A DNA stretch of 62,587 nucleotides from a virus (IMGVR_UViG_3300025679_000008:1-62587), one strand, 5' to 3'; positions 25,713 to 47,454 are shown, counted from the first letter of the stretch. Notes: generated by a model not told the origin, from the letters alone. Made by a program: numbers and translations.

Positions 25713-27500
25713 TTGCCCGAGCTGACCGAAGCGCAGCTGCAGGATAAGAAGGACCAGCTCACCCAGGCTGCGATCACGAGCTATTACAAGGACCACGTCG
25801 GCGCCTGGTTTCAGCGCTACGGGGTACTGAAGAATCCCGAGGGTATCGTCACCAGGTACCCGAACCTAAAGCCCCGGGTAGTCCAGAAGCGGATGTTTGC
25901 CGAGGCCGAGAAATGCCTCCTCGCCGGCAAGCCCTGTATGATGATGGTCCTGAAGCCCCGTAAGGACGGCGCGTCTACCGGCGCCCAGGCGATCATCTAT
26001 CACTGGCTCCGGCGCTGGCACGGCCGCAACGCGGCGATCATGGGAGACATCATCGGAACGTCCGACACCGTCTTCGAGCTCTTCAGGCACTTTGCCCAGA
26101 ACGATACCTTCGACTGGAAGGACGCCTTCGGGGGCCTGAGCCTCGATAACGATCAGACGGATGATATCACCCTAGGCAACAAGTCGACCTACAAGAAGGT
26201 CACGGCCGGATCCAACAACGCCGGCCGCTCCGGCACGATCCAGGTGGCGAACCTAACGGAGGTCGCCTACTACCCCGACGCCGGCGAGCGGGATCCCGCG
26301 CTGGGCTTCCTGGGATCCTGGCATGCCGACGGCGCCTCGAGTCTCGGCATCATGGACTCCACGGCGAACGGGCCCTACGGGACGTTCTATGACTACTGGA
26401 TGGCCGACAACTCCTGGACGAAGATCTTCGTCGCCTGGTTCGAGGAGCCTGAGCACGCGATCGCTTTCGAGGACGAGGAGATGCGCCGGGAGTTCCAGCG
26501 CTCAATGGGACCCGAGGAGCTCGAGGAGCAGGCCAAGTACAACGTCACGCTCGAGCAGCTGCGCTGGCGCCGCAAGATGATCGCCGACAAGTGCGGGGGT
26601 GACGACGACAAGTTCCGCCAGGAGTACCCGTCCGACGCGATCGAGGCCTTCCTGCGCAAGAGTCGCACCAGGTTTAAGGCGGAGACCTTGGCGTCAATGG
26701 AGCGCGCGGCCGCGGCGCTGCCGCCCAAGATCGTCAACCTATCGAAGCAGGATGACGGCACCGTGTCCCCGTACCCGGATCCCCTGGGCAGCGTTCACAT
26801 CTGGGAGATGCCGAAGATCGGCTGCAAGTACATCATGGCCGTCGACTCATGCACCGGCCGGGACCAGCAGTCCCAGGCCCGCGGTCAAAAGCCGGACTGG
26901 CATTCGGTCGGAGTTTGGCGCGACGAGTACCTGGACCTGGCCAACCATCGGCACTATCCGCCGATGCTGGTCGCTCACCACTGGAGCCAGCTCGAGGTCG
27001 ACGTCATGGTCGAGATCGCGGCCGCCATGTCGATCTTCTACGGCCTGTGCATGGCCATCCCGGAGGTCAACGGGTGTGGCCTCTATCCGGTCAAGAAGCT
27101 CCAGGAGCTCGAGATCCCGGTGTGGGAGAGAAAGCGGGACAACGCCCAGACCAACACCGTCGACGTGAGCGGGGGATGGATGACGACTGAGGGGGTAAGG
27201 AAGACGATCATCGACAATCTCGCCGGCCTGATCGCCAGGTGGAAGGTCGAGGATCCCACGTTCGAGTGCTTCAGTATGCACATGATAAACCAGCTCAAGA
27301 AGTTCATCCTGGACAAGACCGGCCACGCGGCCGCCATGCCAGGAGAGAACGACGACGACGTCCTGCAGGGGGCGATCGGCCTCTACAACCTGGGATCCGC
27401 TACCGAGATGAAGGAGCACAAGCGCCCGCGGGTGAACGTCGTGGACATGCTCCGCAAGCAGCACTGGGCCCTTGGTAGCAGTGGCAGCCGGCGGAATTGA
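25713..27500 (+). CDS. terL: Terminase large subunit (595 aa)
   Basis: The 595-residue protein has a terminase ATPase: a variant Walker A at KPRKDGASTG (81-90), Walker B-like VANLTEVAYYP (about 177-187), and then a RNase H-type nuclease with D in AVDSCTG (about 377), E in IPEVNG (about 451) and D in DDDVLQGAIGLYN (about 548). Those three acids are the metal-binding set. The start is TTG 25713, one base after the upstream stop. No small subunit is adjacent. It packages the genome and cuts concatemers. Confidence 0.9.
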   Translation: MPELTEAQLQDKKDQLTQAAITSYYKDHVGAWFQRYGVLKNPEGIVTRYPNLKPRVVQKRMFAEAEKCLLAGKPCMMMVLKPRKDGASTGAQAIIYHWLRRWHGRNAAIMGDIIGTSDTVFELFRHFAQNDTFDWKDAFGGLSLDNDQTDDITLGNKSTYKKVTAGSNNAGRSGTIQVANLTEVAYYPDAGERDPALGFLGSWHADGASSLGIMDSTANGPYGTFYDYWMADNSWTKIFVAWFEEPEHAIAFEDEEMRREFQRSMGPEELEEQAKYNVTLEQLRWRRKMIADKCGGDDDKFRQEYPSDAIEAFLRKSRTRFKAETLASMERAAAALPPKIVNLSKQDDGTVSPYPDPLGSVHIWEMPKIGCKYIMAVDSCTGRDQQSQARGQKPDWHSVGVWRDEYLDLANHRHYPPMLVAHHWSQLEVDVMVEIAAAMSIFYGLCMAIPEVNGCGLYPVKKLQELEIPVWERKRDNAQTNTVDVSGGWMTTEGVRKTIIDNLAGLIARWKVEDPTFECFSMHMINQLKKFILDKTGHAAAMPGENDDDVLQGAIGLYNLGSATEMKEHKRPRVNVVDMLRKQHWALGSSGSRRN

Positions 27501-28664: not shown

Positions 28665-30557
28665 GTGGCCGACCCCGACTACTTCGGTGACACCTACTCG
28701 GATCCATCCCTGCGGCGCCGCGGGGGTGCTGCGGTCGATGACGTAGAGGAAGCGCGGCATATCGGCCGCTCGAGGGCGTACATAAGCCAAGGCTTCCTGC
28801 CTCCAGCTCGAGACAGCCTGGGCGCCGGCGCCGACTATTTCAACGCGCCGACTGCTCCCAGGACCCGGCGGCCCGCTCCTGCAGGGCCCCTGGATAATCC
28901 AGTCTACAAGGATCTCCACGCCAAGCGCGAGGTCCTCACGCAGACCGAGGCGCTGTACCACAAGCAGCTCGAGGACTTCGACAAGGGTGAGGGCGCTGTG
29001 CTCCGCCCCGAGAGGGATCCCGCTACCGGCCGAGAGCTACGCCAGGGCGCCGCCCAGGCTCATGTCCAGTCCCTTGTGGACAAGTCCCAGGGTGATGCGA
29101 CGACGGGCATGGTCCCCAAGGAGGTCCGTGACGCCGAGAAGAACCTGCGCCTCCTGCAGGAGAAACGTCAGCGCATAGCCGACGAAGCGTCTCGGGTGTC
29201 CCAGGCGCGCCAGTCCTTCGACCAGGACGTCTACATGCCGGCCCGCAGTGCCATGCTAGGAGGCGACGGATCCGCGGCGCCGGCGGCAGCTGCAGTTCCG
29301 ACGCCGGCCTCGCCCGTCCAGGACTTCATGCAGCGCGACGGCGGGCCCGCCATCCGGATCCCTCAGGGCAGCATCTATGATCCGGCCGCGCCGCCGGGCC
29401 CTAAGAGCGGCGCCGGTGAGCCGACACCGACGCCGGCGGCCCCGAAGGTTGAGGCAGCTCCGAAGGCCCCGGCGCCACAGGATTCAGGATCAGACAGCCT
29501 GGAGCGGATCAAACAGCGCCACGATGAGTACCAGGCCACGCTCGATGCCGGCGGCGACAATCTCCGCCAGGATGTGCGCGATCGCCTCAAGGCCCAGGTC
29601 TCGATCCTCAACTCCAAGTTCCAGCAGGGAACGATGGAGCAGGCTGATCAAATCAATAGCCTGTTCGCCGGTCACATAACTGGTAAGGGCGCGGTCGGAG
29701 CGCCGGTGGATCCCAAGGCAGCTCAGGCCTACTTCGACAAGTACGCGGCGCTGGGAGATATCTATGCCCGCCACCAGGGCGCGGTGATCGACGCAGCCAA
29801 CAAGCCGGCACTCCAGATCCCGCACCTGAAGGATAACGCTTCGGATTCGGAGCTCATGGCCGCCACGAAAGGCGCGGTCGACGGTCTGTCCGACGTCGCC
29901 AGCGGCCTAACCTCGCCGTCCAATGCGGTGCTGATCGGATCCCTGGGCGTGCTCGGACGGGCCGCGAAAATAGGCTACGCTCCGGCGCGCGCGATCCTGA
30001 TCGCCGCCCAGGCTGAGTTCACGAAACAGATGGCCGAAGGCACCTACGAGGGAGGCAAGCAGTTCATCCAGGATATCCACGATCCCAACGTCTCGCTGCG
30101 GAAGGCGGCTGGCGATGCCACGAAGACCATCGCCAGCGCGGTCTTCACGGCCGGAACGGCTCATGGGATGGTAGGCGAGATCCGGGGCCCTGCAGGAGAT
30201 CCCGCGGTTGGCGATCAGCCCTCACGCCCGGGCGGTGGTGCGAAGCCTCCGGGAGATATAGGCACACCAACGCCTCCGCCGGCGCCGCGGCCGCCTACGG
30301 ATACGTCCGTGCCTCTGGACGATGAGCTCGGCTCGAGGATCTCGGCCCTGCGCAAGAAGGCCACAGATGCCGAGGCTCCGCCTCCTCCAGAGCCTCCTGG
30401 GACCCTGGATCACCGCGCGGCCGGCTACGATACCCGCGAGTCCTTCGACCAGGACTACCACGCCAAAGGCCAGCACGACGTCTTCGAGACGGCCGACGAG
30501 TTCCTGCGCCGGGTCTACTGCTCCAAGCTCGGCCGCGGCAACTTCTCAATCGCATGA
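28665..30557 (+). CDS. Putative internal virion protein (630 aa)
   Basis: A 630-residue protein, GTG start at 28665. Helical coiled-coil regions occur at about 85-190 and 270-330; the linker segments are Pro/Ala-rich. The segment around 390-470 (VDGLSDVASGLTSPSNAVLIGSLGVLGRAA, PARAILIAAQAEF) is hydrophobic-alternating as in membrane-penetrating ejection proteins, with no strict transmembrane helix. The last 40 residues (DTRESFDQDYHAKGQHDVFETADEFLRR) look folded. I infer a component of the ejection machinery, partner of the giant protein downstream. Confidence 0.65.
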   Translation: MADPDYFGDTYSDPSLRRRGGAAVDDVEEARHIGRSRAYISQGFLPPARDSLGAGADYFNAPTAPRTRRPAPAGPLDNPVYKDLHAKREVLTQTEALYHKQLEDFDKGEGAVLRPERDPATGRELRQGAAQAHVQSLVDKSQGDATTGMVPKEVRDAEKNLRLLQEKRQRIADEASRVSQARQSFDQDVYMPARSAMLGGDGSAAPAAAAVPTPASPVQDFMQRDGGPAIRIPQGSIYDPAAPPGPKSGAGEPTPTPAAPKVEAAPKAPAPQDSGSDSLERIKQRHDEYQATLDAGGDNLRQDVRDRLKAQVSILNSKFQQGTMEQADQINSLFAGHITGKGAVGAPVDPKAAQAYFDKYAALGDIYARHQGAVIDAANKPALQIPHLKDNASDSELMAATKGAVDGLSDVASGLTSPSNAVLIGSLGVLGRAAKIGYAPARAILIAAQAEFTKQMAEGTYEGGKQFIQDIHDPNVSLRKAAGDATKTIASAVFTAGTAHGMVGEIRGPAGDPAVGDQPSRPGGGAKPPGDIGTPTPPPAPRPPTDTSVPLDDELGSRISALRKKATDAEAPPPPEPPGTLDHRAAGYDTRESFDQDYHAKGQHDVFETADEFLRRVYCSKLGRGNFSIA

Positions 30558-30955
30558 AAGACAAATACGGATCCGAACATATAGCCTTCGACTGGGGTGG
30601 TGTCCTAAGTGATCGCCCGCTCATGTGGTTCCTGGCGGACAACCTCAGCTTTTGCGGCATCAAGGTTTCCATCATTTCGTGGTGTGGTCCCAATGATGCC
30701 GTCCGTTCTCAGGAGGGAAAGGATCGCCTGGCGGAAAGCGGGATCCCCTGGTCTAACATCATCGGCTTCGATCAATACGGTAGTGAGGACGGCATCATCG
30801 TCCCCGCCGACGCTCCCCGCTTCGACTACATGGTCGGTATCGGCAAGGTCCGGAAGATGCGGGAGATCGGGGCGACGGCGATCTTCGACGACAACCCCTG
30901 GGTCGTTCGTGCCGTCCAGGACTCCGGCCTCCAGGCGCTACAGGTCATTCGATGA
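30554..30955 (+). CDS. HAD-like protein (133 aa)
   Basis: FDWGGVLSD at 12-20 resembles HAD motif I (DxDGTLxD), with the second acidic residue replaced by glycine, and FDDNPWVVRAV at 111-121 is HAD motif IV. S42 may serve as motif II and K98 or K101 as motif III. A proper HAD phosphatase needs D-x-D; loss of the second Asp suggests it is a phosphotransferase variant or a non-catalytic relative. The length is less than the usual HAD with a cap domain. It overlaps the ATP-grasp-like gene, so the two probably act in one pathway. Confidence 0.7.
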   Translation: MKDKYGSEHIAFDWGGVLSDRPLMWFLADNLSFCGIKVSIISWCGPNDAVRSQEGKDRLAESGIPWSNIIGFDQYGSEDGIIVPADAPRFDYMVGIGKVRKMREIGATAIFDDNPWVVRAVQDSGLQALQVIR

Positions 30956-32220
30956 AGGATGTCCAACAAGTCGTCTGCATGGTCATTGACGGGGGCCTGC
31001 ACCCCGACTTCGCCGTGCGCCTAGCGCGAGACTTTGCGAAGGTGTATTACTACACGCCTCCGAGCGGCGGCGCATTTCAGACGATAAACGCCGCCACGAT
31101 CGGAAAGGGGCTCGAGGGAATCGAAGTGGTGGACACGCCCTTCATCGAGGAGTTTAACCAGATCGACCTGTTCGTCGTCACTGACATTCACTTTGGGCCG
31201 CTTCAGGTCCATCTCGAGAGCCTGGGCAAGAAGGTCTGGGGGTCAAGGATGGGTGAGGAGCTCGAGCTCGAGCGTGCCGGCACGAAGAAGGCCATGCAGC
31301 GCGTGGGCCTTCCCGTGAACAAGTACAAGGTGGTGCGCGGCCTGGATGAGCTCCGGGCGTACCTGAAGGACAAGAAGGACGTCCACGTCAAGGTGAGCCG
31401 GTACCGCGGGACGTTCGAGTCCTTCATGGTTACCAACTTCAAGAACGTGGAGCCGCTCCTGGACAGCGTCGAGATGGACATCGGCCCCCTGAAGAACGAG
31501 ATCGACTTCATCGTCGAGGATGATCTCCCAGACCGGATCGAGATCGGCATCGACGCCTGGACGGTCGACGGCGCCTGGCCGGAGAAGGTGCTCCTGGGTA
31601 TCGAGGTCAAGGACGCCGGCTACGTCGGGGTGTTCAAGCCCTGGGCCGAGATCCCTGAGCCGGTCCGCCGGTGGAACGAAAAGATGAGTCCGATCCTGGC
31701 GAAGTACGGATACAAGGGATCCATCTCCACAGAGAACCGGATCGGGAAGGACCTGGTGCCGCACATGATCGACGCCACCTGCAGGTTGCCGTCTCCTCCC
31801 AGCGAGCTCTTCGCGGAGTTCTACCTCAACATGCCGGAGATCGTTTGGAAGGCGGCCAACGGGATCATGGTGCTGGCGCGGCCGGCGGCCAAGTTCGGCG
31901 TCGAGGCGATCATCAAGTCCAGCTGGGCTGTCGACAAAAACTGGCAGCCGATCGACTTCCCGTCCCAGCACCGCAAGCGGATCAAGCTGCACTGCGGGTG
32001 CAAGATCGACGGCCGCTACTACATCGTCCCCCAGACCTACCAGCTCGAGGAGATCGGCGCCGTCGTGGGCTGGGGTGACACGATCGAGGACGCGATCGCC
32101 GACGTGAAGAAGATCGCCGACACGATCGAGGGCTACGGCATCAAGGTTCGCACGGACGCCTTTGCCGACGCTCAAGGGGAGATGGACAAAACGAATGAGA
32201 TAGGGCTAAAGATTTTCTAA
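30952..32220 (+). CDS. ATP-grasp-like ligase (422 aa)
   Basis: The protein has the layout of PurD/carboxylate-amine ligases: an N-terminal nucleotide-binding region, then a GTKKAMQRVGLPVNKYKVV segment followed by DELRAYLKDKKDVHVKVSRYRGTFES, typical of the substrate-binding subdomain, and FIVEDDLPDRIEIGIDAWTVDG (residues about 180-205), as in the ATP-grasp core. Downstream come GSISTENRIGKDLVPHMIDATCRLPSPPSELFAE with conserved acidic residues and N at the metal-binding position. No recognised family member is identical. It would ligate a carboxylate to an amine using ATP. Partner HAD protein overlaps upstream. Confidence 0.7.
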   Translation: MKDVQQVVCMVIDGGLHPDFAVRLARDFAKVYYYTPPSGGAFQTINAATIGKGLEGIEVVDTPFIEEFNQIDLFVVTDIHFGPLQVHLESLGKKVWGSRMGEELELERAGTKKAMQRVGLPVNKYKVVRGLDELRAYLKDKKDVHVKVSRYRGTFESFMVTNFKNVEPLLDSVEMDIGPLKNEIDFIVEDDLPDRIEIGIDAWTVDGAWPEKVLLGIEVKDAGYVGVFKPWAEIPEPVRRWNEKMSPILAKYGYKGSISTENRIGKDLVPHMIDATCRLPSPPSELFAEFYLNMPEIVWKAANGIMVLARPAAKFGVEAIIKSSWAVDKNWQPIDFPSQHRKRIKLHCGCKIDGRYYIVPQTYQLEEIGAVVGWGDTIEDAIADVKKIADTIEGYGIKVRTDAFADAQGEMDKTNEIGLKIF

Positions 32221-32345
32221 TGCCCGAGCTTTTCCTACCTGAAGTAGAGGTATCCCTGGATCCCAGCGAGACAGGGCTGCACGGCTGCCTAGAGCCTTTG
32301 CTCGACGATCCACCTGAAGGAGAGGAAGACGATGGCGAAGATTGA
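32220..32345 (+). CDS. Small acidic protein (41 aa)
   Basis: The ATG (32220) overlaps the ATP-grasp gene stop as TAATG. The 41 residues are strongly acidic (EVEVSLDPSETG, DDPPEGEEDDGED) and end in frame with the start of the giant protein 13 bases into it. Whether it is translated is unproven; it may serve as a leader. The acidic composition is unlike the surrounding basic proteins. Confidence 0.45.
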   Translation: MPELFLPEVEVSLDPSETGLHGCLEPLLDDPPEGEEDDGED

Positions 32346-35300
32346 TTGCCCGAATATCAGCCTGCCGGCCTGGAAGGGCCTGGTCGACCAGTTGGGCCCC
32401 GAGAAGGCCTATGCCGCCTATTTCCGTAACGGCAACGAGATCCCGGACCTGAGCAAAGCCCATAATGACCTGAGCAGCCGGCCCGGATCATACAACGGGC
32501 CGGCGGACGCGCGGCCGGTTGAGGAGCAGTACAAGGGCCTGCCCGCGTCTAAGGGAGGGAAATATATCTCAACCGACGTGGCCCGCAGGATCATCCCTGG
32601 CTATGATCCGATGAACCCCACGGCCACCAACGGTGTAGCCTCGGAGATCACCGAGAAGGCTTACACCCAAGCCCTGTCAGACCAGACCACCAAACAGGTT
32701 GAGATGTTTGCCGGAGGATCCGGATCGGGTAAGTCAGGAATGCTCGCGAAGATAACCGCGCCCAACACCCTCATCTACGACGGCCTGTTCTCGAGCAAAG
32801 ATTCCCTCGACCGTCTCGATCGTACGGTGGCCACGGGAAAGCCGGTAGCGCTCACTTATATCCACCGTCCCATCGAGGATGCGATCGGCGGTATGTTTCG
32901 GCGCGCGCGCAAGGATGGGGCCACTCAGCCGATCGTACCGGCCGACGTCGTCGCCAAGGGGCATTTCAACTCGGCCGATAACTTCCTTCAGGCTTACGAT
33001 AAATATAAGGACAACCCCAACGTGAGCTTCCGGGCGTTTGACAATGGCCGCGGAGAGGGTAAGGCTGACTTTGCCGATAGCCCGATCGACTTCGTAAGGA
33101 AGCTGGTGGCTGACCGGCCATCCCGAGAAGAGTATTATGAACGTGCCCGATCCCATCCTGAAGTCCCAGGCCTCTCCGACGCCGACCGAGCAACATACCT
33201 CGGAGCTAGACCCGTTCGGGAAGCTGCTCCTGGACAGCCTGAACAAGGCAACGCTGGAGGATCCGTCCCCGACGTACCCGGAGCGCCAGGTGATCGTCCC
33301 GCCGGCGACGTAGCGCCTGGCGTTGACACGCCCGCGCCAGCGGACCAGCCTCCGGCAAATGCACCACAAGCACCCACTCAAGGCGGCGGTGAAGCATCAC
33401 ACGATGGCGGCCGCGCCGGTGGATCGGCACGCGGTCAACCCGACAGCGAAGGGAACGCCGGCGTTCCAGGCGGCCCACACGGGGAGACCCCAGGGGTACT
33501 TCAACCAGGGCCAGCAGCCGGGCCGGGCAGCCTCGACGCTTCAGAACGATCCGACGTCCGATCCGGCGCAGTAAGCGGGGCTCCTGGGATATCACCAAGG
33601 AGCGTAGCCGGCGGGGTTCCAGTCGTCGAGTTCCCTGTCGAGAAACTCAAACTCTCGAAGGACGTACCCCAATTCAAGGCGAACGCCAATGAGCGGGGAG
33701 TTGTTGAGCCGCTGGCAGGATCCTACGATCGCCGCGGCGGTGGGGCCCTGCAGGTATGGCAGCGATTGAACGGGGATTACGAGGTCATCTCCGGAAGGCA
33801 CCGTTTTGACCTGGGGCTGCGGACAGGGGAGAAGACCCTGCCGGTCCAGATATATAGGGAGTCCGAGGGGTTTGACAAGATGTCGGCCGCGCGATTGGAT
33901 GCGGAGCTAAATATACGGGACGGAAATGGATCAATCGCCGACTACTCCAGCTACTTCAGGCACTCCGGCATCACCGACGCGGATGCCCAAGCCCGCGGAC
34001 TTCTGGCGCGAACAAAGGGCAAGACCGGATTTCAAATTGCGCGAGACTCGAGCGAGGACACTTTTGCTCTCCATCAGGCCGAGCGCCTCTCAGACGACGC
34101 AGCCAGCTCCATCTCCCGCGCCGCGCCCGGTGACGCAGGCCTCCAGGGCGTAGGCGCCAGGGCGGTCCTCGAGGGCAAGTCGGCCGCCTTCGCTGAGAAC
34201 CTGGTCCAGGCGGCCCGGCTGCGCTCCGGTGGATCCTCGGGAGCTGAGAGCGGCGATCTCTTCGCCTTCGATGATTCGGCGATGAAGGAGATGGAGGCCC
34301 AGGCCAAGCGCGCCCAGCAGGCCCAGCAGGCCATACGGGAGCAGATCTCGGCCGCCCAGGGCGCCGCCAGGAATCCCGTCATGGCGAAGAAGCTCGGGGT
34401 CGACGTGAAGGATCCGGCGGCCGTGCAGGGCAGGATCAACAAGCTGAAGGCCGACCTCGAGCGCTGGCTGCATTGGCCGACCCAGGAGGACCTGGTAGCC
34501 AAGACCCGGGATCCGATGTTCGACCCCAGGAGCGAGACGGCCGCCTTCCCAGGCCTGGTCTCTGGCCGGGCCGCGGAGGCCTGGGCTGACGACGTCATCA
34601 AGTCAAAGGCCGGTCAGGTGTCCGGCGGCATTGATCCCGAGTACATCGCGGCGTTCGCTATCAAGGGTGCGGCGATCATCGAGCGCGGGATCCGTGACTT
34701 CGCCTCCTGGTCCGCGGAGATGGTGAAGGAGTTTCCGACGCTCACGGCCGATGCCCTGCAGAAGATCTGGGCCCAGGTGAAGGCCAACGGCGCTGAGGTA
34801 CCGGACAATCCCAAGCCGCGGCCGACTGCAGAAGATGGGACTCGCTTCCGCAGCACACCGGACACCGAGCGCGAAGGGCAGCGCGCCGCCGGCGTGGATC
34901 CCACGGTCGATCGGCAGACCTACCAGGTGCGCGCAAAGAGCGAGGCTCGAGCGGCCGCGCGGGTCCTGATCGACCTCAGTGGCGCGGAGAAGGCCCGGGA
35001 GATGTCCAGGGATCCGGACTCGCAGCTGCCTCAGGATATCCGCGGTGGTATCTTCATTGAGCTCGCGGCCGATGCCGACAAGCGGATCCGGGAGGCCAAG
35101 AAACCCGAGGAGCGCGCGGCCGCGATCCGCGACCGCCAGGCCTTGAGCTCGAGCGAGGCTGTCGAGAATACTGGCCTCGGCCAGAGGATCTCCATGCTGG
35201 GGGAGCTCAACAAGAACACCCGCGCCGGCGTCACCCAGGAGTACCTGGACCAGACCGATCGACGCCAGCAAGGGGAGTTCGGCCAAGACGGTCAGAAGGC

Positions 35301-38049
35301 CGCCGGCGACTTCGCGAAGGCCACGAACGATATCAACGCCGGCGCCGTGGACCCGGCGATCGCCGCGGTGAAGCCCAGGATCGCAAAGGTGAAACTCAGC
35401 GGGCCGATCTGGGACAAGTACCGGGAGGATGCCGCCACGCGCCTTGCGGATCTCGTGGAGTCCAAGGCCGAGCCCCCGAAGGATAAGGCTCCCCTGCAGG
35501 AGTTCACCCAGCGCATCGTTGAGGAGATCCGCGGCCGCATCAAAGGCCTGCTCCCGAACAAGGAGCCGGTTGAGTCCGCCTCGCCGCTCGCCATCCTGGC
35601 CGAAGCCATGCGCAACCCGGAGAAGTACAAGCAGGTGGTGGACTCGGTGCGCAAGGAGTTCGTCGATCGCTTCGGTGAAGGCAGCCCGCCGGTCGACCTG
35701 ATCGACACGGAGCTGGGCAACATGGATCTGAGGCCGTACTCCAATCGGATCCTCGACCAGGTCACACGCCAGGCCCACGAGGAAATGCAGACCTCGGTAG
35801 CGAAGATCGCCCGCACACACTGGACAAAGGCGGACCGAGTCAACCGGGATCTTGCGGAGGCTCTCGTGACCGGCCTGAGGCTGAAGCCGGAGGATGCTCA
35901 CATGCTGGCCGATGACCTGCAGAAGAGGATGGACGAGCTCACGCAGGCGGCCAGGTCCAAGGCGATCTGGCAGCTCATCGAGCGCGCCCAGACTCCGCGG
36001 GCTAAGAAGATCCTCTCCACGCTCGAGAAGACGGTGAATCTAAACAACCTGGGCGCGCTCACCGAGGCCACGGCCAGGGACGCCGTGGCGAAGCAGCTGG
36101 GCCTACCTCACGTGGACAGCGCGGATCTCGATCGCCTGGGGCAGCTGGCAGACAAGGTCGAGACCGCTCCGAATGTCGCGGCGAAGGCCCGGGCGACGAT
36201 CAACCTGGCCAAGGAGCTCCGAGACCTGCAGCGGCCGGGAAAGTGGAAGGATGCGATAGACACCGGGTTCTCGATGCTCTACGCGAATCTCCTCTTCTCG
36301 AAGACGATCGCCGTGAAGTCGATCGCCGACGTGACGAACACGATCTCGCGCGTCGGCTCGGCCGCCCTGGCGAATCCTCTGGACGCCGGCACTGTCGTAC
36401 ACGCCTGGCTGGACAGCATGGGCATGGGATGGGAGCAGGCGAAGTCCGTGATCCAGCGCGGCAAGGGCGGCGCCGGCTACTCTCCAGAGATGGGCGGGTA
36501 CCGATCGGCCGGCTCGGATCCCTGGCATCTCAGCGGCCTCGAGGGGAAGAATCTACCCCTGACCGGCGGCCGCGTTCCGCTCCCGCACAAGTACGTCCCC
36601 CGGATCTACAAGGCGATCGAGTCGATCTTCTACTACCCCGCGCGAGAGGCCTACGCTCGCCTGGTGGCCACGAAGCTCCTGCAGAAGGATGGGTACCGCG
36701 GAGCGGAGCTCCGGCGCAAGGTGCGCGATACGCTCGGGATCTCCCCGGACCAGTTCCAAAACTTCCGGCTGCAGGCGGAGCGCGAAGGCTTCACTGGCGA
36801 CGACGTGGGCCTGCGGGTCGGCAGCCTGGTTGAGCAGCACCGGGTCAAGAACGCGCCGGAGGCCTCGGATCAGAGTCAGAGGTTTGCCGAGGAGACGGTC
36901 TTCAAGCAGGAGCCGAAGGGCATCGAGGGTGTGATCTACCGCAGCGGCCGCGACCTGGCGTCAAAGGTCACGATCGCCGGCGTGCCGGTCCTCAAGCCAT
37001 TCATGCTCTTCATGAAGATCCCGACGAACGCCTTCTCGATGTCGGCGGAATACACTCCGATCGGGATCAAGCGGGCGCTCATGGGGACCAGGGATGCCGG
37101 CACCGGCGAGAGGATCCCGCCGACTACCCAGGAGAGAAACCAGATGCTCATCCGCGGCACCGCGGGATCCCTCATGATGGGGGCGCTGGTGGCGGCCGTG
37201 GTCAACAAGAGCAACGACGGGCACTTCGATGTCACCGGCCGCGGGCCCAGCCAGCCGAACAAGCGCAAGCAGCTGCAGCAGGCCGGCTGGATCCCGTATA
37301 GCTTCCGTGTCGCCGGCGGGCCCTATATCAGCTACGCGCATAGCCCGCTCATGATCCCGCTGTCGTTTGTCGGCAACGTGGCGGACATGTACCGCTATGA
37401 GAAGGAGACGCCGCAGTCGGACTACCTCATGGGCTCGAGGCTGGCTCAGGCCGGAATGCGATCTGGATTCTCGGTCCTGGATCTCCCGATGCTTCAGGGC
37501 ATGTCCCAGCTCCTCGACGGGATCCGCGGCCGCTCGAGCGTCGCAACCTTCAACCGTTTCCTCGCCGGCACGGCAACGTCGACGGTCCTGCCGAAAGGCC
37601 TCATGGAGATCGACCAGGCCTTCGACCCGAAGGAGTACGATCCCACGCCCGGGCGCCTGGGGCAGCTCGAAAGCCAGGTCCCGTTTGCCCGGCGCCTGGG
37701 CGAGCAGCAGCTCGGGCCCACAGGCGAGCCGCTGACCTATAGCCCTATCCAGAGATTCATGAGCCTCGAGGTACCGGGGATCGCAAAGACCCTGTCAGAC
37801 AAAGGGGTCTTCATCACGAACGAGCCGCGGCCGTCGATAGGTTCGGGCAACTCCAAACGCCCGGCCACCGCGGCCGAGTACCAGCGCTACCAGAAGGAGG
37901 CCGGCGCCGAGATCCTCGAGAAGATCCGCGGCGCCATGCCGGAGTTGAATGGCATGGACCAGAAGCGGGCACAGGAGCGCGTGGACCAGATCGTCCGAGA
38001 TGCCAGGTACGCCGCCCGGATCAACCTGGAGAACGCCGGCACCCCTTAG
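32332..38049 (+). CDS. Giant polyvalent ejection protein with zeta-toxin-like and ParB-like domains (1905 aa)
   Basis: A 1905-residue protein, ribosome-binding site GAAGGAGAGGAAG. Residues 1-300: nucleotide-binding, zeta-toxin-like, P-loop GGSGSGKSG at 127-135. Residues 300-425: Gly/Pro-rich linker. Residues 430-600: ParB-like domain (VVEFPVEKLKLSK, VISGRHRFDLGLR). Residues 620-1250: long helical rod. Residues 1550-1745: LPD38-type region (KIPTNAFSM, TGRGPSQPNKRKQLQQAGWIPYSFRVAGG). LPD domains mark large polyvalent proteins that phages and other elements inject or carry. It lies between the terminase and portal genes, so it is probably a virion protein ejected with DNA, carrying enzymes into the host. 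Confidence 0.82.
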   Translation: MAKIDCPNISLPAWKGLVDQLGPEKAYAAYFRNGNEIPDLSKAHNDLSSRPGSYNGPADARPVEEQYKGLPASKGGKYISTDVARRIIPGYDPMNPTATNGVASEITEKAYTQALSDQTTKQVEMFAGGSGSGKSGMLAKITAPNTLIYDGLFSSKDSLDRLDRTVATGKPVALTYIHRPIEDAIGGMFRRARKDGATQPIVPADVVAKGHFNSADNFLQAYDKYKDNPNVSFRAFDNGRGEGKADFADSPIDFVRKLVADRPSREEYYERARSHPEVPGLSDADRATYLGARPVREAAPGQPEQGNAGGSVPDVPGAPGDRPAGDVAPGVDTPAPADQPPANAPQAPTQGGGEASHDGGRAGGSARGQPDSEGNAGVPGGPHGETPGVLQPGPAAGPGSLDASERSDVRSGAVSGAPGISPRSVAGGVPVVEFPVEKLKLSKDVPQFKANANERGVVEPLAGSYDRRGGGALQVWQRLNGDYEVISGRHRFDLGLRTGEKTLPVQIYRESEGFDKMSAARLDAELNIRDGNGSIADYSSYFRHSGITDADAQARGLLARTKGKTGFQIARDSSEDTFALHQAERLSDDAASSISRAAPGDAGLQGVGARAVLEGKSAAFAENLVQAARLRSGGSSGAESGDLFAFDDSAMKEMEAQAKRAQQAQQAIREQISAAQGAARNPVMAKKLGVDVKDPAAVQGRINKLKADLERWLHWPTQEDLVAKTRDPMFDPRSETAAFPGLVSGRAAEAWADDVIKSKAGQVSGGIDPEYIAAFAIKGAAIIERGIRDFASWSAEMVKEFPTLTADALQKIWAQVKANGAEVPDNPKPRPTAEDGTRFRSTPDTEREGQRAAGVDPTVDRQTYQVRAKSEARAAARVLIDLSGAEKAREMSRDPDSQLPQDIRGGIFIELAADADKRIREAKKPEERAAAIRDRQALSSSEAVENTGLGQRISMLGELNKNTRAGVTQEYLDQTDRRQQGEFGQDGQKAAGDFAKATNDINAGAVDPAIAAVKPRIAKVKLSGPIWDKYREDAATRLADLVESKAEPPKDKAPLQEFTQRIVEEIRGRIKGLLPNKEPVESASPLAILAEAMRNPEKYKQVVDSVRKEFVDRFGEGSPPVDLIDTELGNMDLRPYSNRILDQVTRQAHEEMQTSVAKIARTHWTKADRVNRDLAEALVTGLRLKPEDAHMLADDLQKRMDELTQAARSKAIWQLIERAQTPRAKKILSTLEKTVNLNNLGALTEATARDAVAKQLGLPHVDSADLDRLGQLADKVETAPNVAAKARATINLAKELRDLQRPGKWKDAIDTGFSMLYANLLFSKTIAVKSIADVTNTISRVGSAALANPLDAGTVVHAWLDSMGMGWEQAKSVIQRGKGGAGYSPEMGGYRSAGSDPWHLSGLEGKNLPLTGGRVPLPHKYVPRIYKAIESIFYYPAREAYARLVATKLLQKDGYRGAELRRKVRDTLGISPDQFQNFRLQAEREGFTGDDVGLRVGSLVEQHRVKNAPEASDQSQRFAEETVFKQEPKGIEGVIYRSGRDLASKVTIAGVPVLKPFMLFMKIPTNAFSMSAEYTPIGIKRALMGTRDAGTGERIPPTTQERNQMLIRGTAGSLMMGALVAAVVNKSNDGHFDVTGRGPSQPNKRKQLQQAGWIPYSFRVAGGPYISYAHSPLMIPLSFVGNVADMYRYEKETPQSDYLMGSRLAQAGMRSGFSVLDLPMLQGMSQLLDGIRGRSSVATFNRFLAGTATSTVLPKGLMEIDQAFDPKEYDPTPGRLGQLESQVPFARRLGEQQLGPTGEPLTYSPIQRFMSLEVPGIAKTLSDKGVFITNEPRPSIGSGNSKRPATAAEYQRYQKEAGAEILEKIRGAMPELNGMDQKRAQERVDQIVRDARYAARINLENAGTP

Positions 38050-38086: not shown

Positions 38087-40150
38087 ATGCCCCGTACGAC
38101 AAACTTCGTCCTGAACCAGGAGCAGGAGAATCGGCTGACCCAGTTCATCGACAACAAGTACGAGGCGCTGAAGCAGGATAACCTCGAGCGCCTGGTCCTG
38201 GACGCCCAGGCCTGGAAGCGCTACAACCTCGAGGTCAAGGAGCGGGATTCGCTCAACCAGGAGATCTACAGCCTGTCGAATATCCCGGTGCCGGTGTACG
38301 CGATGATCATGGAGCATTTCGTTTCGCGCTCCGAGGACTCGACCACTGGCGACAAGCCCTACTTCCATTTCGACGCCGTCGGCGGATCCCAGGATCGGGC
38401 GATGGCCTATGACCGGTACTTCAACTGGAAGCTCGATGAGATGGGCCGGGTCCACGAGTCCCTCCAGGATGACCAGCTCCCCACCTTCATCCAGTGCGCG
38501 AGCTTCCTGAAGGCGGTATTCAAGCGGGAGACGATCGGATGGATCGACCACGACAAGCAGGTCCTCCACGATCGGAACACGAGGCAGCCGATCGAGATCC
38601 TGAATCACGGGCCGATAATCAAGGACGAGGACGGATTCACGCCGCAGCTGGATCCCGTTGGCGGCATCCGCGGCGCCTTCGGGGCGAAGCCTGAGGAGCG
38701 CCTCCATCTCAACGCGGATCCCACGTTCGTCATGGACGAGTCCAAGCACTACTGGGACAAGCCGCCGGCGGGGCTCAAGCGGACGGAGAACATCTACACC
38801 GGGGCGAAGAGCGAGAACATACCCTACGATCGGATGCTCGCCCCGATGGATGCCGAGTCCTTCGATGCGGCGGACACGGTGATCGAGATCCAGGACCGGG
38901 ACTTCAACTGGTTTCAAAATAACTGGATCGAGAGACCGTTCCTCAGGTGGGCGGATTTCGTAGGCAAGTTCAGCATCGGCGACACCACGTCGAAGGCAGC
39001 CAAGGACAGCCCGACCCAGAGCACTCAGACCGGCACCGTTACCCCGGTGGCCAACGACACGGTCAATCCCGTGCGCAAGGTCTATGAGTGCTGGATCCGC
39101 CGTGACGTAATGGGCAACGGGACACTGCCACCCCAGGACTTCGTTTGCTGGTACGACGTGGAGACCAAGGTGCTCGTGTACTACGAGTGGTTGGCGAAGG
39201 TCTGCCCGGACATGAAGCGGCCGTACACGGTCACGGCTATCCGCAAGATGCCGAAGCGCTGGTGGGGAAAGAGCATCTGGCAGGTGGGTAAGCCTATCTT
39301 CGAGTCGATCGACCGCCTGTTCAACGGCGAGTTCTTCCGCGCCATCCAGCAGGCCAACCCCCCGAAGGGCGGAGATCCGAACGCCGCGGTCGAGGAGCCG
39401 CGGGACATCGGCGCGGATCCCACGAAATACTGGGAGCTGAAGAAGGGCCGCAACATCAAGGAGCTCCTCGAGTACGCCACAGTCCCGGATACCAACGCCC
39501 GGAGCCAGATGATCCTCGAGTACCTGGTGTACTGGCTGCAGCTGTGGCTCGGGATCTCGAACCTGGCCCAGGGCGACTACCAGGCGGTCAACACGAACGC
39601 CACGAAGTACGGGATACAGAAGACGCTTGCGGAGAGCTCGATGCTCGGCCGGCGCTGGATCCGCCGGCTGATCTCATCCTGGGAAGAGCACATCACGAAG
39701 CTCGTCCTCATCACCGTTCAGACGCTCCCGCAGAACCAGAAGGAAACCTACGAGTACACCGAGGGTGACCAGCGCAAGAGCGCGCTGATCCAGGCGATCG
39801 ACATCAAGCAGCTGACGATTCACGTCTCGATAGTCATGGGCCAGAACCAGGAGGAGAAGGACATCGAGCGGGCCAAGACCGCCCTGGACGTCCAGGAGAA
39901 ATACTTTGGGCAGATCAACCCGCAGGTCCGGCTTGTCATGCGGCCGCTGCTCGTGGAGATCCTGGGCGACCTGGGGTACGACAATCCCGAGGACCTGCTA
40001 CCGATCACTGCGGCGCTGCCCGTGGATCCGGCGATGCTGGGCGGCGGCGAGGGTCAGCTGCACAAGGCCGTGGCTGTCGCCGCCGGCGCCGCGGATCCCA
40101 ACTCCGGGGTGCCGATCCCTCAACCCCCTGAAGCCGGAGGCAAGAAATGA
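38087..40150 (+). CDS. Portal protein (687 aa)
   Basis: The N-terminal YALKQDNLERLVLDAQAW and NIPVPVYAMIMEHFVSR segments, then the long alpha-beta middle and PFLRWADFVGKFSIGD, VYECWIRRDVMG and KRWWGKSIWQVGKPIFESIDRLFNG, follow a portal pattern. The C-terminal half (YWLQLWLGISNLAQGD, GRRWIRRLISSWEEH) supports it. The usual alternative, a tail-hub protein, lacks the helix-rich C-terminus. It is 687 residues, large as in N4-like podoviruses. Unusually it is about 11 kb downstream of the terminase. Confidence 0.85.
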   Translation: MPRTTNFVLNQEQENRLTQFIDNKYEALKQDNLERLVLDAQAWKRYNLEVKERDSLNQEIYSLSNIPVPVYAMIMEHFVSRSEDSTTGDKPYFHFDAVGGSQDRAMAYDRYFNWKLDEMGRVHESLQDDQLPTFIQCASFLKAVFKRETIGWIDHDKQVLHDRNTRQPIEILNHGPIIKDEDGFTPQLDPVGGIRGAFGAKPEERLHLNADPTFVMDESKHYWDKPPAGLKRTENIYTGAKSENIPYDRMLAPMDAESFDAADTVIEIQDRDFNWFQNNWIERPFLRWADFVGKFSIGDTTSKAAKDSPTQSTQTGTVTPVANDTVNPVRKVYECWIRRDVMGNGTLPPQDFVCWYDVETKVLVYYEWLAKVCPDMKRPYTVTAIRKMPKRWWGKSIWQVGKPIFESIDRLFNGEFFRAIQQANPPKGGDPNAAVEEPRDIGADPTKYWELKKGRNIKELLEYATVPDTNARSQMILEYLVYWLQLWLGISNLAQGDYQAVNTNATKYGIQKTLAESSMLGRRWIRRLISSWEEHITKLVLITVQTLPQNQKETYEYTEGDQRKSALIQAIDIKQLTIHVSIVMGQNQEEKDIERAKTALDVQEKYFGQINPQVRLVMRPLLVEILGDLGYDNPEDLLPITAALPVDPAMLGGGEGQLHKAVAVAAGAADPNSGVPIPQPPEAGGKK

Positions 40151-40881: not shown

Positions 40882-41664
40882 ATGAAAAATCGCCTCCTGT
40901 CCTTCCTGCTTCTCTTCGTCGTCCTGCTCTGCGCCTGGGTCACGCCGGCGCGCGCGCAGCTCACCCCGGTCAACATAACAACCGGCGGCACGTACCCGCT
41001 GACCGCCGGCGAGTTCGCCGTGGTCACGCCGGCTTGCTCCGGCGCCGTCACCTTTATCCTGCCCCTGCAGCCGGTGGGAAGCTCCGCCGTCAAGGTCAAG
41101 AACCAGAGCCAGCAGCAGGATACGATCTCCGGCCCGATCTACTCGACCGGCGCGGTTACGTCGATGTTCCTCAACCCGGGACAGATGGCCACCTTCGACT
41201 CGGACGGCGTCTACGAGGACACCTATCTGCCGCAGAACCTCATCGACACCTACACGCAGCGCCTCGGGGGTTCGGCCTACAATCTCACCGTCACGAACGC
41301 CGCGATCGTCGGCGGCACCACAAGCCCGGTGATCCAGATCGGAAACACCGACGCCGGTTGGTACTGGGTCTTCGCCTCGGTGGTGACCTACAAGAATGCC
41401 GCCACCTATGCCGCGCAGCAGTTCGAGACCTTCCAGGTGTTCCGAACGAACAACACGATCGGCGCGATCGCTGGCACCGGCGTCTCCAATCCTATCGGTC
41501 CGATCACGACGATCACCGACTCGGCCGGGGCGATCACGCTGCCGCCGGTCCTCGTCTACCTGAACGGCTTGGACATCCTCACTATCTACGGCCAGGTGAG
41601 CGCAACGCCGGCGGGCAACATCCAGGTCACGGCAGCGAATATCCTGGCGGTTAGGTGGCAGTAA
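40882..41664 (+). CDS. Exported beta-rich protein (260 aa)
   Basis: The N-terminus MKNRLLSFLLLFVVLLCAWVTPARA-Q is a classical Sec signal peptide with a cleavage site after ARA, so the mature protein begins QLTPVNI. The mature part is beta-rich with NITTGGTYPLTAGEFAVVTP, VKVKNQSQQQDTISG and an LPQNLIDTYTQRLGGSAYNLTVTNA stretch. The gene is followed by a second signal-peptide protein starting at the same stop codon (TAATG). The combination suggests a fibre-associated or host-envelope protein. Export of virion-type proteins is unusual, as phage tails assemble in the cytoplasm. Confidence 0.75.
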   Translation: MKNRLLSFLLLFVVLLCAWVTPARAQLTPVNITTGGTYPLTAGEFAVVTPACSGAVTFILPLQPVGSSAVKVKNQSQQQDTISGPIYSTGAVTSMFLNPGQMATFDSDGVYEDTYLPQNLIDTYTQRLGGSAYNLTVTNAAIVGGTTSPVIQIGNTDAGWYWVFASVVTYKNAATYAAQQFETFQVFRTNNTIGAIAGTGVSNPIGPITTITDSAGAITLPPVLVYLNGLDILTIYGQVSATPAGNIQVTAANILAVRWQ

Positions 41665-44408
41665 TGCGCTGGCTGCGGATAGCAGCGGCCGCGCTCCTGG
41701 GCGCCTGCGTGGCGCGGGCCCAGGTTGTAGTCCCGATCACCGTCACCAAGGCCTCGGGTACGAACGTACTCAACGGGCCGATCGTCATCCAGCCCAGCGG
41801 CACGGGCCTGCAGGCTGGCGTCGGGGCCACGGTTGATTTCACAGGCGCCACACTGTTGGGATTTCCAGGGGGCGGTACCGTGAACACCTTCTCGGCCGGG
41901 ACACTGTCTCCGCTCTTCACTACTAGCGTAGCGAATCCCACGACGGCGCCGGCACTGACATTCAACGCTTCCACCGCTGCTCAAAATGCCGTCCTGGTAG
42001 GCCCTGTCAGCGGCGGCACAGGAGCATACAGCTTCCGGCTTCTACAAGCTGCGGACATCCCGTCGCTATCCTACCAGCCCCTCGCCACGAACCTGACCAG
42101 CCTCGCCGGCCTGTCCTACGCCTCCCTGTCCTTCGTGAAGATGAGCGCGGCCGGCACGTTCTCCCTGGATACAAACACCTACCTGACCTCCAGCACGGGC
42201 GTCTCGTCGATCGCCGGGACGGCAAATCAGATTACCGCCTCTGGTTCCACCGGCTCGGTCACGCTCGCGCTCGCGTCGCCACTCCTCGCTCCCGGACTGA
42301 TAGAGCACACCAACGGCGGCAGCACGACGCCTTCCAGTGTATTTGCCGGAGCTACGACGACCGGCCTTTATTGGGCCAACCCCGGCATAGGGTTCACAGT
42401 GGCCGCAACGAGCATCGGCACTATGACGTCGACCGGCTTGAACGGCATGGCTGTAGGAGCGACGACGGCGAGCACGGGAGCGTTCACGAGCCTGTCAGCG
42501 TCGAGCGGGCTCACCGTGTCGTCGGGGAATGTCGGCATCACGTCCGGCAATGAGACGATCACCGCCGGGAACCTGACTATTTCGGCAGGCACGATCTCCG
42601 CAACTGACGTCTTGACGGTAACCAGTGGCACGACCAACGAGCTTTCAGCAACTATTAACAATTCTTCCACTGTTTCTAGTTTCACCGGGAGCATTAATGC
42701 GGGTTTATTCACGGCGGCTCCTGCGTCTACGAACACCCAGAATTGGACAGCTGGAGCCTTTAATTCCTCTAGTTTGGGAATGGCCGCGGTTGTAGCCAGG
42801 GTGGGATCAAATAGCGCGGCAAGCGGCACCGTCACGATGGCAGCGGCCTCAGTCGCCGTATTTGCGTTTGGTAGCAGTTTAACGACCACAAATTTAATTG
42901 GGTTCTTCAATCCGAGCGGGGCATTAACAAGTACCTTTGGTTCAATTTACGGCGCCTATATCGGCGCGCAGACGGGGACGATTACGAACGCCGTCGGCAT
43001 CGCTGTCGCCACGCAAACCGGAGGGGGCACCGGCAACGCTGACATCATCTTCGGCACCGCAGTCACGCCGTCACTCCCCAGCGGCAACGTCGGCCTCTAC
43101 CAGCAGGATGCCTACGCGAACACCCTTGCAGGTATCACGAATTTCACGAGCGGCACCGCCTCAACGACGACCGGCACAGGCTCAGTCGTTGTCACGGGGG
43201 GCGTCGGCATCAGCGGCGCAGTCAACATCGGGACGACGCTGACTGCGACCGGCGGCGCGTCCTCGCTCGCCAACACGTCCATCGCGGGTGCCGCGGCCAC
43301 GACCGCGTTAACGATCACCCAGACGGCCCGCACGTCCGGTGTGCTCCCTTACGTCAAATATACCATCCCGACCGACACCGCCCAGACCGCCTCCACGGAG
43401 TCGCCTGGGATTCAGGGCGTCACCGGGACGCGGACTTGGGCCACCACGGGCACAGTTGCCCTCCAGCGCGAAATCTACTGGCCCGGCCCGACCTACGCCA
43501 GCGCCTCAGCCTCTCAGACCTTCACCGATGTTTTCAACACCTATTGGGACAAGCCGATTCAGGGGTCGAATGCGGTATTTACTCGGTCTCACACGCTGGG
43601 AGTTGTCGATTCTACGTCGGCGGCTTCGTCGATCACGGGCGCCGTCGTAATCGCTACCACGCTCGGCACGACGGCCACGAGCGTCGGAATTGGCGGGGGC
43701 AACATCAACGCAGGAGGCGGGATTACGGGGGCAACGGTAACATCGACTGGAGCGTTGACTGCAGGGGCGACGGCGATCACAGGAGCAGCAGCAACTACGG
43801 CCCTGACGATAACCCAGACCGCCCGGACCTCCGGCGTCCTTCCCTACATCAAATGGACGATCCCGACCGACACGGCCCAGACGGCTTCGACGGAATCTCC
43901 AGGCTTGCAGGTCGTGACCGGCACGAGGACCTGGGCGACGACAGGCACCGTTGCCCTCCAGCGCGAGAACTTCTTTGCGGGCCCCACCTACGCCAGCGCC
44001 TCAGCCTCTCAGACCTTCACCGATACCTTCACGCTCTATGCCACGCCGCCCGTCGCAGGAGCCAACGCCATCTTCACGCGCGGGCACACGCTCGGCATCG
44101 TGGACCCGACCAGCGCCGCAAGCGCGATCACCGGAGGCCTGGTGGTGGCAACGACGCTCGGCACGGCGGCAACGTCGGTCGGTATCGGCGGCGGCAATGT
44201 GAATGCCGGCGGAACGATCACTAGCGGTACCACGATTACCGCAGGATCTACGATCACCACGGCCGCCGGCGTGACTAACGCTGCCGGCGTCTGGAACCTT
44301 GGAGCCCTTCGCTCGAGCACCGCCCTCGTGACGTCCACAACCCAAGTCATTCAGATTGCCGTGGGCGGCACCCTCTTCTCGCTCATGACCTGCACAACCA
44401 ATCCTTGA
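41664..44408 (+). CDS. Fibre-like protein with N-terminal signal peptide (914 aa)
   Basis: Start ATG 41664 is fused to the previous stop. MRWLRIAAAALLGACVARA-Q is a signal peptide with a cleavage site after ARA. The body has the repeats of phage tail fibres: QAADIPSLSYQPLATNLTSL, VVVTGGVGISGAVNIG, and two 165-residue copies (see repeat entry). The C-terminus ends SLMTCTTNP. It resembles host-recognition fibres, but export across the inner membrane would not fit tail assembly; possibly the start is used differently or the protein is an exported decoy. The central stretch at 42660-42960 has lower GC. Confidence 0.72.
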   Translation: MRWLRIAAAALLGACVARAQVVVPITVTKASGTNVLNGPIVIQPSGTGLQAGVGATVDFTGATLLGFPGGGTVNTFSAGTLSPLFTTSVANPTTAPALTFNASTAAQNAVLVGPVSGGTGAYSFRLLQAADIPSLSYQPLATNLTSLAGLSYASLSFVKMSAAGTFSLDTNTYLTSSTGVSSIAGTANQITASGSTGSVTLALASPLLAPGLIEHTNGGSTTPSSVFAGATTTGLYWANPGIGFTVAATSIGTMTSTGLNGMAVGATTASTGAFTSLSASSGLTVSSGNVGITSGNETITAGNLTISAGTISATDVLTVTSGTTNELSATINNSSTVSSFTGSINAGLFTAAPASTNTQNWTAGAFNSSSLGMAAVVARVGSNSAASGTVTMAAASVAVFAFGSSLTTTNLIGFFNPSGALTSTFGSIYGAYIGAQTGTITNAVGIAVATQTGGGTGNADIIFGTAVTPSLPSGNVGLYQQDAYANTLAGITNFTSGTASTTTGTGSVVVTGGVGISGAVNIGTTLTATGGASSLANTSIAGAAATTALTITQTARTSGVLPYVKYTIPTDTAQTASTESPGIQGVTGTRTWATTGTVALQREIYWPGPTYASASASQTFTDVFNTYWDKPIQGSNAVFTRSHTLGVVDSTSAASSITGAVVIATTLGTTATSVGIGGGNINAGGGITGATVTSTGALTAGATAITGAAATTALTITQTARTSGVLPYIKWTIPTDTAQTASTESPGLQVVTGTRTWATTGTVALQRENFFAGPTYASASASQTFTDTFTLYATPPVAGANAIFTRGHTLGIVDPTSAASAITGGLVVATTLGTAATSVGIGGGNVNAGGTITSGTTITAGSTITTAAGVTNAAGVWNLGALRSSTALVTSTTQVIQIAVGGTLFSLMTCTTNP
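43281..44270 (+). repeat. 495-base direct duplication inside the fibre-like gene
   Basis: The region from 43281 is repeated from 43776 at a spacing of 495 bases (165 codons). Both copies encode I-[AT]-GAAATTALTITQTARTSG, PTDTAQTASTESPG, TRTWATTGTVALQRE, PTYASASASQTFTD and a TSVGIGGGN[IV]NAGG end. A 36-base run covering TYASASASQTFTD is identical in nucleotides. It looks like a recent internal duplication of a fibre domain. Confidence 0.85.
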
Positions 44409-47232: not shown

Positions 47233-47454
47233 ATGCTCACCCTTGCCGATATCAGCGGCCGAGATGTCGGCTCGCTCCTCATCCAGCTCCTTATCGCCGG
47301 CGTGGTCTTCTACCTGGTGGTGTGGCTGATCGGCTGGATCGGGATCCCGGCGCCCGTCGACAAGGTCATCAAGGCGATCATCGGGATCGCTCTGGTCATC
47401 TACCTGGTGAACGTCCTGGCCGGCCTAGGCGGCCATGCCTTCATCCACTGGTAA
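47233..47454 (+). CDS. Two-helix holin-like protein (73 aa)
   Basis: Residues 14-36 (GSLLIQLLIAGVVFYLVVWLI) and 45-65 (KAIIGIALVIYLVNVLAGLG) form two transmembrane helices, with the linker IPAPVDK and the end HAFIHW matching a recognisable small phage membrane family. Consistent with a class II holin. The final 14 bases overlap the convergent helicase gene. It is the last gene of the late block. Confidence 0.75.
   Translation: MLTLADISGRDVGSLLIQLLIAGVVFYLVVWLIGWIGIPAPVDKVIKAIIGIALVIYLVNVLAGLGGHAFIHW

What the first reader, a model, noticed from the sequence alone, without database searches (positions are those of the whole stretch)
32332..38049. 1905-residue polyvalent ejection protein combining P-loop kinase-like, ParB-like and LPD38 regions
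A zeta-toxin-like P-loop, a ParB-like domain, a long helical rod and an LPD38-type region occur in one chain located between the terminase and portal genes. The combination suggests an enzyme-loaded protein delivered with the DNA, a possible carrier of antidefence or takeover functions.
Basis: partly seen in the sequence, partly recalled or inferred. Interest (0 to 1): 0.75.

Follow-up and report, generated by a model that had tools for sequence, protein, structure and literature searches.

The report
Giant phage ejection protein carrying enzymes
A short-tailed phage encodes a 1905-residue protein whose tail end resembles proteins that phages eject into the cell with their DNA, and whose front half carries a cell-wall-toxin-type kinase and a ParB-like DNA-clamp module, an unusual payload on a known kind of delivery protein.

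Summary
The observation largely holds. ORF 32332-38049 encodes 1905 aa, has a good ribosome site, and lies between TerL-like and SU10-type portal genes. Three separate homologies map onto it. (1) Residues ~61-250 are a zeta-toxin-family kinase of the gonococcal zeta_1 type: catalytic Asp (D82) and Walker A Lys (K134) are invariant in 36/36 relatives. (2) Residues ~428-726 are a module shared at about 31-63% identity with some 90 distinct giant phage and prophage proteins. Its model (pLDDT 91) matches ParB/Noc/KorB over the NTP-binding and helix-turn-helix domains (Z ~12). It is not DdrB-type ParB. (3) Residues ~1548-1770 belong to the 'internal virion protein' family phrog_6651. They are not LPD38 by any sequence test, but sit where LPD38 sits in relatives. 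Residues 745-1290 are helical but poorly predicted. Best reading: a polyvalent ejection protein whose C-terminus helps delivery, with the kinase acting on envelope precursors (UDP-sugars) and the ParB module binding nucleotide and DNA early in infection. Delivery and activities are inferred, not shown. Polyvalent proteins, and zeta-like kinases in them, are already described (Iyer 2017). The three-way combination was found only here. New variant of a known kind.

The parts
32332..38049 (+). whole polyvalent ejection-type protein, 1905 aa
   Evidence: open frame with ribosome site, three independent homologies
32512..33081 (+). zeta-toxin-type P-loop kinase, about residues 61-250; catalytic Asp D82 (32575-32577), Walker A GGSGSGKS 128-135 (32713-32736)
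   Evidence: 12/12 family members hit Pfam Zeta_toxin, best 2e-15; profile hits gonococcal zeta_1 toxin 6EPH E 6e-13; D82, R85, K134, D150, R179, R190, H211 invariant in 36/36 relatives
33232..33597 (+). Gly/Pro/Ala-rich linker, about residues 301-422, presumably disordered
   Evidence: composition
33613..34509 (+). ParB-like module, residues 428-726: NTP-binding domain (P motif GRHR 488-491, C-motif loop KDVPQFK 443-449) plus HTH-like helical domain (to about 632) plus conserved SGDLFAFDDSAM 640-651 and helices
   Evidence: 46% to Vibrio/Shewanella phage giant proteins; 92 distinct rows in the tree; model pLDDT 91 matches ParB/Noc/KorB, Z 12.2 over 178 residues
34564..36201 (+). helix-rich middle region, residues 745-1290, low confidence
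   Evidence: secondary structure of AlphaFold model, mostly pLDDT 30-60
36202..38046 (+). C-terminal delivery region, residues 1291-1905; core 1548-1770 is phrog_6651 internal virion protein family; hydrophobic segment 1606-1624
   Evidence: phrog_6651 E 2e-15; 25% over 587 aa to MW202801 protein; related to cyanophage internal virion proteins and a Bordetella plasmid-prophage protein; BFVD fold matches
38087..40150 (+). portal protein (context)
   Evidence: SU10_portal 4.7e-11; phrog_1216 portal 4e-9
25713..27500 (+). terminase large subunit (context)
   Evidence: 24-26% to annotated terminases over >80% of length

Best explanation
It is a polyvalent ejection protein of a short-tailed (SU10-portal-type) phage. 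Shown by homology: the C-terminal ~600 residues belong to a family that ends internal virion proteins and giant polyvalent proteins; the N-terminal domain is a zeta_1-type kinase with intact catalytic residues; the middle module is a two-domain ParB core with an intact GxxR nucleotide motif. Inferred: a few copies are packed in the head through the C-terminal region and leave before or with the DNA; the C-terminal hydrophobic segment engages the inner membrane, as T7 gp16 does; the kinase, fused by a flexible linker, phosphorylates UDP-sugar envelope precursors (or a related nucleotide) in the newly infected cell, weakening or stalling wall synthesis to aid entry or to pre-empt the host; the ParB module binds a nucleotide (ATP favoured over CTP, weakly) and holds incoming DNA in a clamp-like way.
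For: C-terminal family. It lies near the C-terminus of giant phage proteins of up to 3036 aa, some of which carry ADP-ribosyltransferase domains. Kinase; in PMC5923241 Asp56 is the proposed catalytic base and K115A the inactive mutant of ng_zeta1, and both align with D82 and K134. ParB core. Gene position between TerL and portal. The same ParB module sits in giant proteins next to annotated virion genes in Vibrio phage 1.183 and with LPD38 in 56 ORFs. T7 gp16 precedent (N-terminal envelope enzyme, C-terminal membrane and DNA-binding part): PMC8954989. Iyer 2017 (PMC5512222) already proposes that zeta-like kinases in polyvalent proteins weaken the wall.
Against: No virion proteomics. No HExxH peptidase motif that could free the parts. 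The C-terminal model has no solved-structure match, so likeness to T7 gp16 is functional analogy only. The window kinase alone scores below the Pfam cut-off (18.7 v 22.3 bits), and it has Pro at position 200 where 35/36 relatives have Arg. All but one of the other relatives of this kinase are stand-alone genes, so fusion to an ejection-type protein is not conserved.
Confidence: 0.6

Rival explanations
1. The enzyme domains are made late in the producing cell and act there (growth arrest, superinfection exclusion, lysis timing); the C-terminal region only ties the protein to assembly.
For: Stand-alone relatives of the kinase are not fused to any delivery domain and sit 1.5-3.9 kb upstream of TerL in 40 of 47 distinct records (counted after merging loci of the same contig), a place compatible with ordinary intracellular action.
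Against: Fusion to an internal-virion-protein C-terminus and to a module otherwise found in giant polyvalent proteins is hard to explain if the product is never delivered.
Confidence: 0.2
2. The kinase acts on NAD or another nucleotide rather than on UDP-sugars, touching host nucleotide signalling or NAD-based defence.
For: The fold family also includes AvrRxo1, named in PMC5923241 as a close structural relative; at least one substrate-contact residue of ng_zeta1 (N75) is not conserved in the alignment.
Against: The only solved relative found clearly by sequence is the UDP-sugar kinase ng_zeta1 (E 6e-13), and the catalytic block GG[KR]xIxTDxxR corresponds to it.
Confidence: 0.25
3. A purely structural ejection protein in which kinase and ParB folds are scaffolds that no longer act as enzymes or switches.
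For: The ParB motif has Arg (R489) where CTPase ParBs have Glu; the window kinase deviates at several sites that are otherwise conserved.
Against: Core catalytic residues are invariant across 36 kinase relatives and nearly so across 93 ParB relatives despite roughly 30-60% overall identity, which indicates selection for activity.
Confidence: 0.15

Closest known systems
Polyvalent proteins of phages (Iyer et al. 2017, PMC5512222)
   Same: one large chain with disparate enzyme domains, encoded among virion genes; zeta-like kinases are listed there for conjugative elements and for MuF fusions in phages
   Different: C-terminus is not LPD38; ParB module is not DdrB-type; no peptidase motif; the combination kinase + ParB core + phrog_6651 end was not found elsewhere here
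Gonococcal zeta_1 toxin (PDB 6EPH, PMC5923241)
   Same: rewired N-terminal block with catalytic Asp (D56 = D82) and Walker Lys (K115 = K134)
   Different: no antitoxin gene recognised beside it; fused to a virion-type protein
ParB / Noc / KorB core (6T1F, 7NFU, 8QA9)
   Same: NTP-binding domain followed by HTH-type helical domain, Z 10-12
   Different: P motif is GRHR (GxHR, as in Srx/SbnI/SerK from my own knowledge), not GERR; no ParA-binding motif; part of a giant protein
Large proteins of Vibrio phages 1.183, 1.211, D478 and Shewanella phage X14
   Same: 46% identical ParB module in a giant protein of the virion gene block
   Different: 1.183 protein carries a methyltransferase and LPD38 and no zeta-type kinase
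Internal virion proteins of Synechococcus podoviruses (phrog_6651; S-CBP4, S-B28)
   Same: homologous C-terminal core, 25-29% identity
   Different: no kinase or ParB module detected in them
T7 gp16
   Same: works-like: N-terminal envelope enzyme plus membrane/DNA-handling C-terminal part in an ejected protein
   Different: no detectable homology here; transglycosylase instead of kinase

Membership tests
Zeta toxin family, zeta_1 type | Walker A P-loop with Lys | tested here: met
   GGSGSGKS 128-135; K134 invariant 36/36
Zeta toxin family, zeta_1 type | catalytic Asp in the N-terminal rewired block | tested here: met
   D82 aligns with D56 of 6EPH, invariant 36/36
Zeta toxin family, zeta_1 type | Pfam PF06414 score over cut-off | tested here: inconclusive
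   window domain 18.7 bits v 22.3 cut-off; all 12 family members match, best 2e-15
Zeta toxin family, zeta_1 type | cognate antitoxin gene | tested here: inconclusive
   neighbours read by eye; no short antitoxin-like gene recognised, none searched for by profile
Zeta toxin family, zeta_1 type | phosphorylates UDP-sugars | not testable with these tools
   needs biochemistry
ParB-CTPase fold proteins | GxxR P motif in a ParB/Srx fold | tested here: met
   GRHR 488-491, R491 in 92/93; fold match
ParB-CTPase fold proteins | HTH domain after the NTP-binding domain (canonical ParB) | tested here: met
   alignment spans model residues 8-217 to Noc, Z 11.9, 195 residues; fold only, DNA binding not shown
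ParB-CTPase fold proteins | GERR box with Glu, and ParA-binding motif (canonical partition ParB) | tested here: not met
   R489 in place of Glu; no [LFI]G[KR]G[LFI] motif
DdrB-like ParB (PF18763) | Pfam match | tested here: not met
   none of 42 members matches at E 0.1, while 20 match ParB_N
LPD38 (PF18857) | Pfam or profile match | tested here: not met
   no Pfam match; hhalign probability <2%. Position near the C-terminus is equivalent, and the model matches proteins named 'Large polyvalent protein associated domain-containing', so remote kinship stays open
Phage internal virion protein family phrog_6651 | profile match | tested here: met
   E 2.2e-15, residues 1548-1754
Phage internal virion protein family phrog_6651 | present in virions and ejected | not testable with these tools
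   needs proteomics
Polyvalent proteins | several disparate effector domains in one chain | tested here: met
   kinase plus ParB core plus virion C-terminus
Polyvalent proteins | encoded in the virion structural gene block | tested here: met
   between TerL and portal
T7 gp16 | homologous chain with N-terminal transglycosylase | tested here: inconclusive
   no transglycosylase found by Pfam; no PDB match of the C-terminal profile or model

The most novel reading that the evidence does not exclude
The ParB-like module, kept (at about 31-63% identity to this one) across some 90 distinct giant phage and prophage proteins with very different payloads, is a virion-delivered, nucleotide-gated ParB/Noc-type clamp that loads on the entering phage genome. 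In this phage it is combined with an ejected UDP-sugar kinase, so one ejected chain would both handle the incoming DNA and disable envelope synthesis.
Probability: 0.2. Interest if true: 0.78.

Novelty: new variant of a known kind. Interest (0 to 1): 0.5.

Why it matters
It gives a specific, testable reading of a giant phage protein: which residues should be catalytic (D82, K134, R491) and on what class of substrate. It also indicates that the ParB-like part of a large set of polyvalent proteins is a two-domain ParB core (NTP-binding plus HTH), not the DdrB-type domain described there so far and read as a DNase. If a clamp is delivered with the genome, this would bear directly on how phage DNA is handled and protected in the first moments of infection.

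Tried and rejected
Direct LPD38 assignment: rejected by Pfam and by profile-profile comparison with both short and extended profiles; the column-shuffle control failed to parse and is not used. DdrB-type ParB: rejected. T7 gp16 homology: not found by sequence or fold; this is no evidence of absence, as the C-terminal model is of middling quality. Scans with the whole protein or the ParB module alone found no relatives because single-sequence patterns were too specific; alignments worked. A first genome scan with the kinase alignment found nothing. A joint kinase+ParB alignment (A9) misaligned the kinase rows and was not used for modelling, so the kinase has no model here. Metallopeptidase for self-processing: no HExxH. 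A tree of ParB modules needs about 18-20 changes of C-terminal type, but many 'other' rows are contigs cut before the C-terminus, so that number is inflated.

Full report
What was checked. The window is a whole virus record of 62,587 bases. ORF 32332-38049 (+) is open for 1905 codons, preceded by an AGGAGAGGA ribosome-binding stretch; the longest open frame in 30 mononucleotide shuffles was 416 codons. It stands in a plus-strand gene block: TerL-like 25713-27500 (24-26% identity to annotated large terminases), five smaller ORFs, this gene, then the portal 38087-40150 (SU10_portal). In phage SU10, five ejection proteins are present in the virion and lost on genome release (PMC9509320).

Kinase. 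The whole protein gives no significant Pfam match. Residues 66-248 are 32% identical to the C-terminal part of an 878-aa phage protein (MW202577) that Pfam calls Zeta_toxin at 1.5e-7. Alignment-based scans of viral contigs gave relatives, nearly all stand-alone genes of about 290-320 aa. All 12 members of alignment A4 match Zeta_toxin, the window domain itself at 0.0013, below the cut-off. A profile of A4 clearly finds one solved family, gonococcal zeta_1 toxin (E 6e-13). The aligned stretch includes the block that is moved N-terminal in zeta_1 and carries its catalytic Asp56 (PMC5923241); Asp56 aligns with D82 and Lys115 with K134. Over 36 distinct relatives G76, T81, D82, R85, the P-loop with K134, D150, Y176, R179, R190, V202-P203 and H211 never vary. 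So the P-loop is not degenerate and the domain is very probably an active kinase of this type. The UDP-sugar substrate is inferred from the solved relative. Stand-alone relatives sit 1.5-3.9 kb upstream of TerL and portal in 40 of 47 distinct records (after merging loci that come from the same contig).

ParB module. Residues 428-726 are 46% identical to the corresponding part of giant proteins of about 2,700 residues in Vibrio and Shewanella phages, which in Vibrio phage 1.183 lie directly after annotated virion genes. Scans with alignments found the module in 80 viral loci and 21 bacterial genomes or metagenome-assembled genomes; identity to the window module ranges from about 31 to 63%. Their other domains are those of polyvalent proteins: LPD38, ADP-ribosyltransferase, RadC, inorganic pyrophosphatase, methyltransferase, SNF2 and others. 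Twenty of 42 members match ParB_N weakly, none DdrB-ParB. An AlphaFold model (pLDDT 91) matches ParB, Noc and KorB not only in the NTP-binding domain but through the HTH domain: Z 12.2 over 178 residues with Caulobacter ParB, 11.9 over 195 with Noc. The P motif is GRHR, with G and H invariant and R491 in 92 of 93 relatives. This lacks the Glu of CTPase ParBs and looks like the GxHR of sulfiredoxin, SerK and SbnI (from my own knowledge of those families). The loop KDVPQ resembles the KDVPP that PMC12704722 lists for an ATP binder, but that paper warns that nucleotide choice cannot be predicted from sequence.

C-terminal region. Residues 1548-1754 match phrog_6651, internal virion protein, at 2e-15, and the region aligns with cyanophage internal virion proteins, an environmental podovirus protein over 587 residues, and a Bordetella plasmid-prophage protein. 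A scan found more large proteins, up to 3036 aa, with this element near their C-terminus. LPD38 is not present by Pfam or profile comparison. Both elements nevertheless occupy a similar place near the C-terminus, and no ORF has both. The predicted model, middling overall (pLDDT 64, higher in the C-terminal third), matches in BFVD cyanophage internal virion proteins and proteins named as carrying a large-polyvalent-associated domain. I therefore call LPD38 membership 'not met' but leave remote kinship open. The hydrophobic stretch 1606-1624 could be a membrane segment.

Combination. Among the sequences fetched, 62 other ORFs have the kinase, 107 other ORFs the ParB module and 28 other ORFs the C-terminal element (some from overlapping loci of one contig). 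Apart from the window, only one contig (L013 = L124) joins ParB and C-terminal element, and none joins the kinase to either. The scans rely on short peptide patterns and are not exhaustive.

How it probably works. Shown: three homologous modules with intact motifs in one chain in a virion gene block. Inferred: packaging and ejection, from the C-terminal family and gene position; attack on envelope precursors, from the kinase type; nucleotide-dependent DNA handling, from the ParB core. T7 gp16 is a functional precedent: an ejected protein with an N-terminal envelope enzyme, membrane segments and a cytoplasmic part that binds and may clamp DNA (PMC8954989). Iyer et al. proposed in 2017 that zeta-like kinases in polyvalent proteins weaken the wall to help injection, so the idea is not new. 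What is new here is the assignment of the zeta_1 type with its catalytic residues, the two-domain ParB core, the C-terminal family, and the combination.

Verdict.

Noticed in passing
window 30952-32220: 422-aa protein that looks like an ATP-grasp enzyme by eye; a 37% relative lies directly downstream of the polyvalent gene in L014 (13996-15282), so the pair may travel together. PDB search empty.
   Followed up: partly
window 30554-30955: 133-aa protein that looks like a HAD-type phosphatase by eye, just upstream of the ATP-grasp-like gene; untested beyond an empty PDB search.
   Followed up: partly
window 40882-41664 and 41655-44408: Two adjacent proteins (260 and 917 aa) that start with signal-peptide-like stretches; the second is repetitive.
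   Followed up: no
L092-L118, L140-L169: Stand-alone zeta_1-type kinase genes at a constant place upstream of TerL and portal in many podovirus-type contigs; the one tested (L110) has no PHROGs match.
   Followed up: partly
L012:6875-13684, L016:5510-11593: Giant ParB-module proteins with a pyridine-nucleotide-disulphide oxidoreductase (flavoprotein) domain, an unusual virion payload; L012 also has a HATPase domain.
   Followed up: no
window 14481-17138: 885-aa protein with repeated matches to many baseplate and virion PHROGs, probably a repetitive virion or fibre protein.
   Followed up: no
window 6511-8151 (-), 47441-49243 (-): AAA_25 ATPase and ResIII/DEAD helicase: putative replication genes on the minus strand on both sides of the structural block.
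   Followed up: no
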